This document shows positions 56,264 through 63,162 of a DNA stretch of 64,000 nt, piece by piece; positions within the stretch are counted from its first letter, which is position 1; each line of letters starts with the position of its first letter. The DNA lies in NCBI RefSeq assembly GCF_014764505.1, contig NZ_JACXWX010000006.1, forward strand, positions 124,001-188,000, in the 5' to 3' direction. The translations under genes were made by a program, and so were the position numbers. The notes below the pieces were generated by a model. The model had not been told where the DNA came from. It saw only the letters and a program-made list of their open reading frames with translations, and ran no database searches. Origin of the DNA: Phormidium tenue FACHB-886 (GTDB lineage: Bacteria; Cyanobacteriota; Cyanobacteriia; Elainellales; Elainellaceae).

Positions 56264-58159
56264 ATGACCGATCGCCTAACCCAACTTTCTTTACTGCACA
56301 GTGAACCAATACTTAACTACGGCTGGATGGGCACCATTGCTCAGTTCCTTGCAGTTTCCCTGGCAGGCTGGCAAGAGGAGCTCGGCAAGAATTATCAGCA
56401 GCTTTACCGCCAGCAGGCAACTGCGACCCAGCAGCAAGCTTGGCAAGATTGCGGCGAAATATTGCAAAACCAATTGAGGCAATTGATAGTCGATCAATCT
56501 GAAAGTCGAAGCTGGACGCTAATTTTTGAATATGAACTGCCGCGTGAAGGGGGTCGTCGTCCGGATTTGGTGTTGCTGGGAGCCGGACGAATTCTAGTCT
56601 TCGAGTTTAAGCAAAAAGCAACGCCTTCAGCAGCAGATTTAGATCAAGTTGCTGCCTATGCGCGAGATCTATCTGAATATCATGGTGGCTCAAGCCAGAA
56701 TCCAGTTCAAGCAATCCTGGTTCCCACTCGCCGAACGAAGCCCGGTGAGCAGCATGAATCCATTAAAATCCTCGGTTCGTCTGAAATAAAAGATTATCTT
56801 TGTGCCTTAGAAGGAACTTTGCCTGAAGTTGATCCAATTGCCTGGGTAAATGCAGACTATGAGCCGTTGCCCACGGTTGTCCAAGCCGCTCGCCGCATCT
56901 TTCAACAAGAGCCATTGCCAAGTCTCAAAAGTGCTCGCAGTGCTGGTATCCCAGAGCTGATTGCGTATCTCGATCGCCTTGTTATTCAAGCACAGCAGCA
57001 AAAACAGCGGCATTTAGTCTTGATAACAGGAGTGCCGGGGGCAGGCAAAACGTTAGTCGGGCTGCAGTTTGTTTACCAGAACCCGCTTCAGCAAGCAGAC
57101 AAACCGAGCAACAAGCAAGCCGTCTTTCTCTCAGGCAACGCGCCGCTGGTGGCGGTGCTGCAGTACGCCCTCAAAAGCCGCGTGTTTGTGCAGGCAATTC
57201 GCAACTTCTACATCGATCACCAAGTCCGTCGTCAAAAAGCACCCAAAGAACACATCATTGTATTCGATGAAGCCCAACGGGCGTGGGATCTGCGGCGGAT
57301 GAGCGAGGAATATGGGATTGACAGCGCTGCGCCTGGGATTATTTTGCAAATTGCCGAACGAGTGCCAGATTGGTGCGTTTTGCTGGGATTGATTGGTGAA
57401 GGACAAGAGATTCATGTAGGCGAAGAAGAAGGCATTGGGCAGTGGAATTCGGGACTGCAGTCCGTGGCAAGTTCTTGGCAGGTGCATTGCCCTCCAGAGC
57501 AAGCCAGCACTTTCACGGCGATCGCCCCTCCTCATCTCCACACGCATCCCCAGTTCAACTTGACCACTTCTCTCCGCACCCACCTTGCTAAAGACTTACA
57601 AACCTGGGTGTCACACCTGCTCTCTGGTGCCCTCGAAGCAGCAGCTGCGCTCTTCCCGGTTTTAACTGCTGCTGGCTATGATGCTTATCTCACTAGAGAC
57701 TTAGAGACTGCCAAAGCCTACTGCCGCGATCGCTACCAGTCAGAACCCGATAAACGATACGGGCTGATTGCTTCCTCCCGGGCTCGCAACCTCAGCGACC
57801 ACGGTATCCAGAACGATTACATGGCAACCCAACGCGTCAAAATGGGCGCTTGGTATATCGATCCACCCGATTCGCTGCTGTCTTGCTGTGCCCTCAGCAG
57901 CACTGTTACCGAGTTTGGCTGTCAGGGGTTGGAGCTAGATTTTCCAATCGTCGGCTGGGGGGATGATCTGGTGTGGCAGGATGCCTGGGTGGTGACGCGC
58001 TCGCAGCGAAATGTCCGCGATCCACTGCGCCTACGGCTCAACAGCTATCGAGTCTTGCTAACTCGCGGCCGCGACGGCTTCATGATCTTCGTGCCGCCTA
58101 CCTCAAAAATGAATAGCACATTTGCTGCACTGAGATTGGCAGGGCTACAAGTGCTGTAA
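56264..58159 (+). CDS. PD-(D/E)xK nuclease - DUF2075 helicase fusion
   Basis: 631 residues. The N-terminal third contains nuclease-like Asp101 (RRPDLVLLG), Glu114-x-Lys116 (FEFKQ) and Gln128-x3-Tyr132, the arrangement of RecB/Cas4-type nucleases. The C-terminal two thirds form a DUF2075 superfamily 1-like ATPase: Walker A GVPGAGKT (256-263), Walker B FDEAQRAW (334-341), TEFGCQGLELD and LLTRGRDG near the end. A DNA- or RNA-processing role is likely, possibly defence. It stands alone, without a methylase or toxin neighbour. Confidence 0.88.
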   Translation: MTDRLTQLSLLHSEPILNYGWMGTIAQFLAVSLAGWQEELGKNYQQLYRQQATATQQQAWQDCGEILQNQLRQLIVDQSESRSWTLIFEYELPREGGRRPDLVLLGAGRILVFEFKQKATPSAADLDQVAAYARDLSEYHGGSSQNPVQAILVPTRRTKPGEQHESIKILGSSEIKDYLCALEGTLPEVDPIAWVNADYEPLPTVVQAARRIFQQEPLPSLKSARSAGIPELIAYLDRLVIQAQQQKQRHLVLITGVPGAGKTLVGLQFVYQNPLQQADKPSNKQAVFLSGNAPLVAVLQYALKSRVFVQAIRNFYIDHQVRRQKAPKEHIIVFDEAQRAWDLRRMSEEYGIDSAAPGIILQIAERVPDWCVLLGLIGEGQEIHVGEEEGIGQWNSGLQSVASSWQVHCPPEQASTFTAIAPPHLHTHPQFNLTTSLRTHLAKDLQTWVSHLLSGALEAAAALFPVLTAAGYDAYLTRDLETAKAYCRDRYQSEPDKRYGLIASSRARNLSDHGIQNDYMATQRVKMGAWYIDPPDSLLSCCALSSTVTEFGCQGLELDFPIVGWGDDLVWQDAWVVTRSQRNVRDPLRLRLNSYRVLLTRGRDGFMIFVPPTSKMNSTFAALRLAGLQVL

Positions 58160-59839: not shown

Positions 59840-60184
59840 TTAAAGCGCTTTGACTAGGGTTGGACGGGCTTCAGACGGCTTAATTTGGAACTTGACGAGG
59901 TTTGCTAGGTCTTGAAGCTGGCTGATGGCTTCTGCACCCTCCAGCTTCATTAATTCGCGGTCGTCTCGCATCTCTGTCCAGGTGATGCCATAGTCAGACA
60001 CCAGGAAGCGAATCAAATGGTTTTCGCCTAAGCTCACCATGAACGAGGCGCTATTCATTTGTCCGCCGCAGGTGTAGCAAGAAGCGAGGTATCCCCGTTG
60101 TTCCAGCACGGTTGCCAGAGCCTGAAGATTCATCACCAAATCTTGAACAAATCTGCGGTGTTGTTCTGCAAGTCTTAAAAACAT
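59840..60184 (-). CDS. DUF1815 family protein
   Basis: 114 residues of a cyanobacterial family of unknown function. It contains a CxxCGG motif (CYTCGGQ) in a soluble alpha-beta protein, reminiscent of a metal or redox site. A strong GGAGG ribosome binding site precedes the ATG on the minus strand. Its 660-base upstream region is non-coding. Confidence 0.88.
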   Translation of the reverse strand: MFLRLAEQHRRFVQDLVMNLQALATVLEQRGYLASCYTCGGQMNSASFMVSLGENHLIRFLVSDYGITWTEMRDDRELMKLEGAEAISQLQDLANLVKFQIKPSEARPTLVKAL

Positions 60185-60845: not shown

Positions 60846-61058
60846 CTAGTTTACCTGCCACAATCCCAATGCAGGACCTAAAAACCGAACAGTAACCCAA
60901 TAGGCAACAAGTAGACCAATGCCAATCCACGCGCCTCTTGTACTCCAGCTTACAAACTGCTGTGCCTGACTCTTTTTAAAGGGCAACCAAGGAAGAACAT
61001 TCTCTTCCTGTCCGTACTTGTCACCCAGTGTTTCTTTGCGTCGTTTTGAATCTCCCAT
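60846..61058 (-). CDS. DUF2839 family membrane protein
   Basis: 70 residues of a small cyanobacterial family: MGDSKRRKETLGDKYGQEE, a loop with LPWLPF, then one membrane helix (WIGIGLLVAYWVTVRFLG). Function unknown; some proteins of this size sit in thylakoids. Full length, with a GGGAGA-like purine-rich leader. Confidence 0.9.
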   Translation of the reverse strand: MGDSKRRKETLGDKYGQEENVLPWLPFKKSQAQQFVSWSTRGAWIGIGLLVAYWVTVRFLGPALGLWQVN

Positions 61059-61105: not shown

Positions 61106-62713
61106 CTAGCTTTCATCGATCCTACCGCTGATCCCCTCTAATCTTTCCATTTGGATGAACAAGCTAGCATCAACATAGCTAATGCGGGCGAGAGGACTAA
61201 GGGCTGAGAGGACATGCTGCCCATAGCTGCGATGGTTAACTCGGTTATCAAGCAAGGCTACGACTCCCTGAGTTTCCCGCATAGATGCAACTGCCCGCTG
61301 CAGCGATCCCAGCGCTTCTGGTAGCAAATAAAGGCGGAACCAATCTTGGCGCGATCGCTTGTAGTGTGCCACCCGACCTGCCACCAGCGGATCTTCCAGC
61401 GAAGGGAAGGGTAGCGTTGGTATGATCAGCAGCCGGGGTGCAGGTAAAACGGCCTGGTGCTGTCTCCAAAAATCCCATCCTGCTACCAGAATGCCGTGGT
61501 CGTCTAAACAAGTTTTTTCAACCTGTACTCGTGAGCCAAACTCGGCTGCCAGCAGTGATCCCACCTGTGCTTTTAGCGGTGTATCGCTCACCAGAATTAC
61601 AATCAAACCCTGGGTTGCCGTTGCAGTAGCGCTGAGCAAGGCGCGAATCTCCTGCATCAATACAGGTTGAAACTGAGGGGTGTTTGGCATTGGGATGCCG
61701 TCTGGTAGATAAAGCTGGATCAGCTCATGCTGGCGATCGGGATTAAATTTGAGACAGGTCAGCTCCTCTGTGTCCAAGCCAAGTCGCTGACGATAGGCAC
61801 TAGCTTGGGCATCTAGATCCAGAAAATTGCCGACCAGCACAATTGGCTGCTTTGCCCAAATCAAATTTAGTGCCGGAGCCACCTCTACGGGCGCACAATG
61901 CAGAGAAAATTGCCCCTGCCGCCGCACCATTTCCGTCCAAAGCAACTGCCCGTCTTGCTGGAGCAATCGCCCAAACTGCTGCCATGTGGCTGGCAAAAAT
62001 CCTGAGTTGAGCCAGTCTCCATTGGTATCGCCCTGCAAGGCAGCGCTGAGCTGCAGCGTTTGATAGAGCTGGGACAAAATTTCTTGTTCAGGCTGTTCTA
62101 GCAAATAGCGATCGTAGGGATTGGCTGGATGCTGGAACAGAGCGCGAGTAAGCTGGACGCGTGCGTCACGAATGGCATCAACCTGCGAAGGGAATGCCAG
62201 CATCAGCTCATCCCAATTGTGCGGTTGCAATGCGGTTGTCATCTGCTGCTGTGCCCAAGACTCCAGATCATCGGCGCCATCGATCAGCGTCGGGATGCCT
62301 GCTGGGAAGCGCTCTGTACCCGCCAGCCGATCGGACAGCCAAGCTTGAGGGGAGGTGAGCAGCAGCCCGCGAAAGCCTTCCGGATAGCGATCGCCTGTCT
62401 GAATTGCTTTTTGAACTGGTAGCCACTGGCGCAGGCGCGGAATTTCAACCATCAACAGGCGCTGCTGCACGGCTTCTGAAGCCACTAAAACCGCTGGCTC
62501 TTGCCATAGCAACAGCGACATTAAATAGCTCAAGCGATAGCAGCCTTGATAGCCTGTTGGCGCACCCGCCTGAATTAAGGCGCTCCGACCTAAGCGCAGC
62601 GCACGCGCCACCAGTCGCGCCATCGTTAGATGATGGTGCCAGTAGGGTTCTCCTTGCTCTCGTAGAAAGGCACGGAGTTGCTGATGGACTTCGACCTCAA
62701 TCACGCGGCTCAC
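61106..62713 (-). CDS. DinG/XPD-like helicase with degenerate motifs
   Basis: 535 residues related to cyanobacterial proteins annotated as helicase C-terminal (DinG type). The Walker A position reads GAPTGYQGCY (50-59): the GK[S/T] of active DinG is missing. The Walker B position reads LIDGADDL (143-150) in place of DEAH. The C-terminal motif VI region (LQRAVASMRE, then GVVALLDNRV) recalls QGxGRxIR...GVVxxLDxR but lacks GR. There is no four-Cys iron-sulfur cluster. It is probably a non-catalytic DNA- or protein-binding relative. The start is a GTG; V4 is an alternative. Confidence 0.75.
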   Translation of the reverse strand: MSRVIEVEVHQQLRAFLREQGEPYWHHHLTMARLVARALRLGRSALIQAGAPTGYQGCYRLSYLMSLLLWQEPAVLVASEAVQQRLLMVEIPRLRQWLPVQKAIQTGDRYPEGFRGLLLTSPQAWLSDRLAGTERFPAGIPTLIDGADDLESWAQQQMTTALQPHNWDELMLAFPSQVDAIRDARVQLTRALFQHPANPYDRYLLEQPEQEILSQLYQTLQLSAALQGDTNGDWLNSGFLPATWQQFGRLLQQDGQLLWTEMVRRQGQFSLHCAPVEVAPALNLIWAKQPIVLVGNFLDLDAQASAYRQRLGLDTEELTCLKFNPDRQHELIQLYLPDGIPMPNTPQFQPVLMQEIRALLSATATATQGLIVILVSDTPLKAQVGSLLAAEFGSRVQVEKTCLDDHGILVAGWDFWRQHQAVLPAPRLLIIPTLPFPSLEDPLVAGRVAHYKRSRQDWFRLYLLPEALGSLQRAVASMRETQGVVALLDNRVNHRSYGQHVLSALSPLARISYVDASLFIQMERLEGISGRIDES

Positions 62714-62814: not shown

Positions 62815-63162
62815 TTAGCCAAACTGGTCTAAATACTGGTTGAGGTCTTCGGTGATGCGGGTCAACTCCGCTTCGGTAGTGAGGCGGATGCGGTCGTCTC
62901 TCAAGGTAATCAAAACTTTGGCGGCAAAAGGACTTGACCAGATATTGGGGTTGCAGAAAACCTCCAGGAAGACCTCGCCTGTGTGCTGATATTCCATTGG
63001 CTGTTGCGGCTGGGGCTTGCCGCCTGCTGTGTTAGATGCAGTGGCTTTGAGACTATTCATCAGCGAGGCAATTGCAGCTTGCAGTTCTCGTGCTGCGTTG
63101 GGTGTAAAGCTAAAAGAAACTGATCCTTCGGAGAGATTGAGGCGCAGAGGAGCAGAGGACAT
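62815..63162 (-). CDS. Hypothetical protein
   Basis: 115 residues, soluble, beginning MSSAPLRLNLSEGSVSFSFT. The middle has a Pro/Gln-rich linker (GGKPQPQQP) between an N-terminal strand-helix unit and a C-terminal strand-rich part (VFLEVFCNPNIWSSPFAAKV). No catalytic motif, signal or membrane segment. It is downstream of the peroxiredoxin on the same strand, but a terminator lies between. Not recognised. Confidence 0.7.
   Translation of the reverse strand: MSSAPLRLNLSEGSVSFSFTPNAARELQAAIASLMNSLKATASNTAGGKPQPQQPMEYQHTGEVFLEVFCNPNIWSSPFAAKVLITLRDDRIRLTTEAELTRITEDLNQYLDQFG

What the first reader, a model, noticed from the sequence alone, without database searches (positions are those of the whole stretch)
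61106..62713. DinG-like protein that has lost the Walker A lysine and the DEAH box
The sequence keeps the overall DinG order, with GAPTG at motif I and a GVVALLDNR-like motif VI region, but lacks the GK[S/T], the DEAH and the iron-sulfur cysteines. If conserved in cyanobacteria, it is a pseudo-helicase with a structural or regulatory role that, as far as I know, is not described.
Basis: partly seen in the sequence, partly recalled or inferred. Interest (0 to 1): 0.55.

Follow-up and report, generated by a model that had tools for sequence, protein, structure and literature searches.

The report
Cyanobacterial dead helicase relative (sDinG)
This gene makes a protein built like the DNA-unwinding enzyme DinG but stripped of its engine; nearly all photosynthetic cyanobacteria keep it, and it was named once before, in 2025, without a known function.

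Summary
Window 61106-62713, minus strand, encodes a 535-aa DinG/XPD-fold protein without Walker A lysine, DEAH box or iron-sulfur domain. It is not a decaying copy. A profile finds orthologues in 354 of 388 class genomes. None of 113 aligned orthologues has the motif I lysine; dN/dS is about 0.09 in 60 close pairs. Motifs Q, II, III, V and VI are eroded too. In the deepest lineages, probably Gloeobacterales, the copy still carries relics of motifs Q, II, V and VI and mostly sits beside an intact DinG: the decay was stepwise and ancient. What stays invariant is part of the domain-2 region that grips ssDNA in E. coli DinG: a P-motif proline and the Phe638 equivalent, each 113/113. I infer a non-motor nucleic-acid-binding scaffold; no function is shown. 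Added here: near-universality, relic motifs, coexistence with intact DinG in the oldest lineages, absence of intact DinG in most others, and the partly retained ssDNA path.

The parts
61106..62713 (-). sDinG pseudohelicase gene, 535 aa, GTG start
   Evidence: AlphaFold2 mean pLDDT 93.4, pTM 0.91
62618..62641 (-). Eroded Q-motif region, residues 25-32 WHHHLTMA; the Gln is His here
   Evidence: Gln kept in 3 of 114 crown and 9 of 9 deep-lineage copies
62543..62572 (-). Motif I (Walker A) remnant, residues 48-57 QAGAPTGYQG
   Evidence: Lys in 0 of 113 orthologues
62261..62290 (-). Motif II remnant, residues 142-151 TLIDGADDLE in place of DEAH
   Evidence: Glu 14 of 113, His 1 of 113
61820..61837 (-). 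Motif III position, residues 293-298 LVGNFL in place of SATL
   Evidence: Ser 8, Ala 4, Thr 5 of 113
61460..61477 (-). Motif V position, residues 413-418 WDFWRQ in place of SSFWEG
   Evidence: Gly 0 of 113, Glu 1 of 113
61388..61414 (-). P motif, residues 434-442 LPFPSLEDP, aligned to the ssDNA-contacting P motif of E. coli DinG (614-619)
   Evidence: Pro435 113 of 113, Pro442 112 of 113; alignment; P motif from PMC6300356 passages
61337..61345 (-). DWF, residues 457-459; Phe459 aligns with E. coli DinG Phe638, which stacks on deoxyribose
   Evidence: Phe 113 of 113; alignment; role from PMC6300356 passages
61277..61300 (-). Motif VI remnant, residues 472-479 QRAVASMR
   Evidence: The GR of motif VI is kept in 0 of 113
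61220..61267 (-). Conserved GVVALLDNRVNHRSYG after motif VI, residues 483-498
   Evidence: Asp489, Arg491 and Gly498 each 111 of 113
60846..61058 (-). DUF2839 gene, 70 aa, next gene downstream on the same strand
   Evidence: PF10999 over cut-off at this place; same-strand downstream neighbour in 59 of 80 testable loci
59840..60184 (-). DUF1815 gene, 114 aa, further downstream on the same strand
   Evidence: PF08844 E 6.5e-54; neighbour in 39 of 77 testable loci

Best explanation
The protein is sDinG, an ancient paralogue of the DinG/YoaA helicase that has lost its ATPase engine and iron-sulfur domain but keeps the XPD-type two-lobed fold. Shown by sequence: loss of motifs Q, I, II, III, V and VI, near-universal retention under purifying selection, and retention of some of the helicase-domain-2 residues that hold ssDNA in E. 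coli DinG. Inferred: it cannot turn over ATP or unwind DNA, and works as a passive clamp or scaffold that binds single-stranded nucleic acid through domain 2 while its cyanobacterial-specific conserved surfaces (helix 25-40 with W25, H27, R33, R37, R40, and the 377-399 block) hold a partner, in the manner of the D. radiodurans PriA pseudohelicase. Which nucleic acid and which partner are unknown.
For: Fold: AlphaFold2 pLDDT 93.4, pTM 0.91; Foldseek top hits E. coli and S. aureus DinG; VIA-align Z 33.1 to S. aureus DinG, rmsd 3.6-3.8, 497-500 residues aligned. Engine loss: of 113 orthologues, motif I Lys 0, motif VI GR 0, motif V Gly 0, motif II His 1; all 15 canonical relatives have these residues except where the column varies among them. 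Retained grip: P435 113/113, P442 112/113, F459 113/113, aligned to EcDinG A614, P621 and F638; the EcDinG P motif, F615 and F638 contact ssDNA (PMC6300356, passages). Constraint: dN/dS median 0.095, maximum 0.285 in 60 pairs. Spread: 354 of 388 class genomes. Graded decay: the 9 deep-lineage copies keep Q-motif Gln 9/9, motif II Asp 9/9 and His 7/9, motif V Glu 9/9, but motif I Lys 0/9.
Against: No binding, knock-out or expression data. The P motif is only partly kept: F615's position is Leu or Ile in 97 of 113, and Y636 aligns with Asp457. F459 and the prolines are also conserved in active relatives and may be structural. The DNA-binding arginines R117 and R211 of the EcDinG iron-sulfur domain have no counterpart, as that domain is gone. 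The sDinG review could place DNA only partly, on domain 2, with poor metrics.
Confidence: 0.5

Rival explanations
1. A pure protein-protein adaptor: the helicase fold is kept only as a scaffold for a cyanobacterial partner and binds no nucleic acid.
For: In the joint alignment, 30 positions are at least 95% conserved in sDinG but not shared with canonical relatives, among them W25, H27, R37, R40, Q48, D377, G393 and R495, which suggests new surfaces. DNA-binding residues on domain 1 are reported absent in Nostoc sDinG (PMC11981726 section 3.9).
Against: 22 other positions are shared with canonical relatives, including P435 and the DWF triplet on the ssDNA path. No partner is known: DUF2839 adjacency is not universal (59 of 80), and the f26 genomes tested carry DUF2839 without sDinG (8 of 8).
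Confidence: 0.35
2. A residual or re-invented NTPase that uses non-canonical residues.
For: The strand-loop-helix of motif I is still modelled (E45-48, H60-69), and Asp of motif II is kept in 92 of 113.
Against: The catalytic Lys and the motif VI GR are absent in 113 of 113. The motif I loop is the least confident stretch inside the core (block 51-60, pLDDT 66). The review could not place ATP in Nostoc sDinG.
Confidence: 0.05
3. A decaying pseudogene.
For: The motifs are lost; a few orthologue frames are broken in draft assemblies (L007, L047, L048).
Against: 354 of 388 genomes keep it, including genomes of 1.6-1.7 Mb; dN/dS median 0.095; the frame is intact here.
Confidence: 0.02

Closest known systems
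sDinG (short-type DinG), PMC11981726 section 3.9
   Same: Cyanobacterial; two motor domains plus Arch; no iron-sulfur domain; ATP-site residues absent; function unknown.
   Different: The review lists only Nostocales, Chroococcidiopsidales and Pleurocapsales and describes an extra helix alpha3a in the ATP site of the Nostoc protein; the window model shows a loop there (residues 49-59). I could not compare with the Nostoc sequence itself.
DinG / YoaA helicases (E. coli DinG 6FWR/6FWS; NF053712 YoaA)
   Same: Overall fold and domain order, part of the domain-2 P motif and the Phe638 equivalent.
   Different: No Walker A, DEAH, motif VI arginine or iron-sulfur domain; about 100 residues shorter than the canonical relatives of the same phylum.
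S. aureus DinG (8ZEF, 9II8)
   Same: Best structural match, Z 33.1.
   Different: That protein has an N-terminal exonuclease domain (PMC12345164, abstract start in a search listing); this one has none.
D. radiodurans PriA pseudohelicase (PMC4504706, abstract seen)
   Same: A helicase that lost ATP hydrolysis but is kept; a model for how this could work.
   Different: A different helicase family; there DNA binding was shown and evidence for DnaB interaction given, here neither.

Membership tests
sDinG (short-type DinG) | Two motor domains, no iron-sulfur or pseudo-iron-sulfur domain | tested here: met
   Fold match to DinG motor domains; the canonical C180 column is a gap in 113 of 113
sDinG (short-type DinG) | Conserved ATP-binding residues absent | tested here: met
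   Motif I Lys 0 of 113; Q-motif Gln 3 of 113; motif VI GR 0 of 113
sDinG (short-type DinG) | Cyanobacterial distribution | tested here: met
   All 65 genome-contig loci bear titles of cyanobacteria; plasmid and phage hits are partial, under 60% identity, none in a cyanobacterium among those tallied
sDinG (short-type DinG) | Extra helix alpha3a between beta1 and alpha3 (seen in the Nostoc model) | tested here: inconclusive
   Residues 49-59 are loop, pLDDT 66 in block 51-60; the feature comes from one modelled protein
sDinG (short-type DinG) | Compact Arch domain | not tested
   Coordinates not at hand; helices at 164-226 lie where the Arch would be
Active DinG/YoaA helicase | Walker A GK[ST] | tested here: not met
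   0 of 113 within residues 36-80; 15 of 15 canonical relatives have Lys
Active DinG/YoaA helicase | DEAH box | tested here: not met
   IDGADD here; Glu 14 of 113, His 1 of 113
Active DinG/YoaA helicase | Iron-sulfur cysteines | tested here: not met
   Domain absent
Active DinG/YoaA helicase | NCBIfam YoaA or DinG equivalog cut-off | tested here: not met
   96.6 bits against 680. The canonical control L160 also stays under it with 521, so the cut-off alone does not decide
XPD/DinG superfamily fold | Full-length structural match | tested here: met
   Foldseek E 2.3e-21; VIA Z 33.1; hhalign E 8e-45
Pseudohelicase (works-like) | No ATPase or unwinding activity in vitro | not testable with these tools
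   Needs purified protein

The most novel reading that the evidence does not exclude
The cyanobacterial ancestor carried an active DinG and a dead copy. Most cyanobacteria then threw away the active enzyme and kept the dead one as a core, non-motor ssDNA- or RNA-holding factor of their replication-stress or RNA machinery: a class-wide case in which the pseudoenzyme outlived the enzyme.
Probability: 0.3. Interest if true: 0.68.

Novelty: new member of a known kind. Interest (0 to 1): 0.42.

Why it matters
Pseudohelicases are rare in print: the word is found in 3 held papers. This one appears to be the only DinG-family protein in most cyanobacteria tested, in genomes from 1.6 Mb to about 9 Mb, and its deepest copies preserve intermediate stages of engine loss. 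That makes an open question testable: what a DinG does when it cannot move. It also warns that an annotation of 'DinG helicase' in cyanobacteria should not be read as helicase activity.

Tried and rejected
Rejected: a link with thylakoids. So f50/f57/f58 are probably Gloeobacterales and have the gene; f26 (perhaps Pseudanabaenaceae, a guess) lacks it.

Rejected: DUF2839 as an obligate partner. 8 of 8 f26 genomes tested carry DUF2839 without sDinG.

Led nowhere: a single-sequence AlphaFold2 model of the most divergent orthologue (pLDDT 35.6; not used). Paper searches for an earlier functional study: searches gave none on this protein in their listings; led to the review. The phmmer search of the PDB with the single sequence gave only what look like chance hits. 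A first RecA tree lost the four outgroup rows to a too narrow pattern and was redone. The trees are rooted at the midpoint, so whether sDinG arose within the class or before it is not settled.

Rows dropped: of 118 loci L002-L119, 5 short ones (L048, L060, L063, L064, L065) were left out of the 113; 4 of the 113 are copies of others, leaving 109 at 99% identity; the 60 dN/dS pairs contain some of these copies. Three of the 113 have a GK[ST] outside motif I. A1 holds the window protein and 97 others. In one search, 34 genomes had no match: one is G534 (same family as the window, 91% complete), 19 listed are f26, 14 are not listed by the tool.

Full report
What is there. Window 61106-62713, minus strand, is one open frame of 535 aa with a GTG start. 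It matches Pfam Helicase_C_2 in residues 427-506 and NCBIfam YoaA and DinG models at E 1.5e-27 and weaker, far below their cut-offs. The genome holds one copy, and a profile of canonical DinG finds nothing else in it (1 match in G000).

It is a DinG by fold. Orthologues against canonical relatives: hhalign probability 100, E 8e-45, 474 columns, with a long gap where the iron-sulfur domain should be. AlphaFold2 with 98 aligned sequences gives mean pLDDT 93.4 and pTM 0.91. Foldseek's best PDB hits are E. coli DinG (E 2.3e-21), S. aureus DinG and CasDinG, then XPD; VIA-align gives Z 33.1 to S. aureus DinG over about 500 residues. Even the most divergent orthologue aligned, from a 1.7 Mb genome, matches YoaA at 1.4e-14.

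It has lost its engine in every orthologue aligned. In a joint alignment of 113 orthologues (109 non-redundant) with 15 canonical relatives, the motif I lysine is in 0 of 113 and 15 of 15; motif II Glu 14 of 113 and His 1 of 113; the motif V Gly 0 of 113; the second Gly and the Arg of motif VI 0 of 113 each; the Q-motif Gln 3 of 113; motif III Ser, Ala, Thr 8, 4 and 5 of 113.

It is kept. With the sequence as query, 196 of 386 phylum genomes match, 183 of 186 within the class by my count of the listing; with the profile, 354 of 388 class genomes match. Of the 34 misses, 19 are listed as one family (f26), one is an incomplete assembly, and 14 are not listed. Close pairs give dN/dS 0.03-0.29, median 0.095, in the 60 pairs computed (192 pairs qualified by identity).

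Where it came from. Seven of seven loci read from other classes of the phylum carry a canonical enzyme with a GTG(S/C)GKS motif I, DEAH and cysteines. Within the class, 8 of 291 genomes carry a full-length or near-full-length canonical DinG and a ninth a 164-aa fragment. All 8 also have sDinG. One of the 8 (G396) is divergent, and the DEAH pattern failed in it, though the Asp, Glu and His columns are filled in 15 of 15 canonical rows. In the tree, canonical and sDinG sequences are two groups split at 100/100, and the copies from f50/f57/f58 lie outside the crown group (100/97). Those deep copies are intermediate: Q-motif Gln 9 of 9, motif II Asp 9 of 9, Ala 8 of 9, His 7 of 9, motif V Glu 9 of 9, motif VI first Gly 8 of 9, but motif I Lys 0 of 9. 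So, on this sample, the Walker A lysine went early and the other motifs eroded later. A Helicase_C_2 search of 37 chosen genomes found strong, canonical-grade matches (E 1e-41 or better) only in the 5 from other classes; in the 32 of the class, matches were at best E 3.6e-9 and lay mostly in sDinG. Two other long frames (1093 and 1044 aa) matched weakly and were not studied.

What it may still do. In E. coli DinG the P motif (614-619), Phe615 and Phe638 on domain 2 hold the ssDNA (PMC6300356, passages read). HMMER aligns this stretch with residues 434-460 here. Pro435 is 113 of 113, Pro442 112 of 113 and Phe459 (Phe638) 113 of 113. The Phe615 position is Leu or Ile in 97 of 113, and Tyr636 aligns with Asp457, so the grip is not preserved in full. 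Another 30 positions are conserved only in sDinG, many on helix 25-40 and in block 377-399, and may mark a partner site. From this I infer a non-motor nucleic-acid-binding scaffold. A pure protein adaptor is the main rival.

Neighbours. DUF2839 follows on the same strand in 59 of 80 testable loci, DUF1815 in 39 of 77; a divergent TyrA-like gene precedes in 32 of 77; a convergent RecA-like gene follows in 14 of 68. The name TyrA comes from my reading of the sequences; RecA agrees with the PF00154 places in G107 and G205; DUF1815 and DUF2839 come from Pfam. The order reaches into the smallest genomes. DUF2839 does not depend on sDinG, so the link is weak evidence.

What is known. Cheng 2025 (PMC11981726; abstract, sections 2, 3.9 and 4 and passages read) names sDinG from Nostocales, Chroococcidiopsidales and Pleurocapsales, states that no study has addressed its function, and doubts it is an ATPase. 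A full-text search for sDinG found 53 papers; of the 10 listed, only this one is about the protein, by title and abstract. The protein of the finding belongs there by the features tested. What I add is the distribution, the graded decay, the coexistence with an intact paralogue in the deepest lineages, and the partly conserved ssDNA path.

Noticed in passing
window 56264-58159 +: A 631-aa Schlafen group 3 type helicase-domain protein (PF09848, E 2e-64) near the gene; its motor reads GVPGAGKT and DEAQ in the translation.
   Followed up: partly
window 62815-63162 -: A 115-aa protein upstream on the same strand, without a Pfam match over cut-off; it did not cluster with the neighbours of the gene in the other loci compared.
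   Followed up: partly
genomes of family f26: All f26 genomes listed lack sDinG, and all but one marginal match lack canonical DinG in the searches made, so these cyanobacteria may live without any DinG.
   Followed up: partly
genomes G409, G443, G417 of families f50, f58, f57: KaiB was absent in these 3 of 3 while present in the 17 other genomes tested, which served to correct their identity.
   Followed up: yes
L204 (G459), motif II position: A dead copy that reads VDEAQ, the nearest to an intact motif II seen among the deep copies.
   Followed up: no
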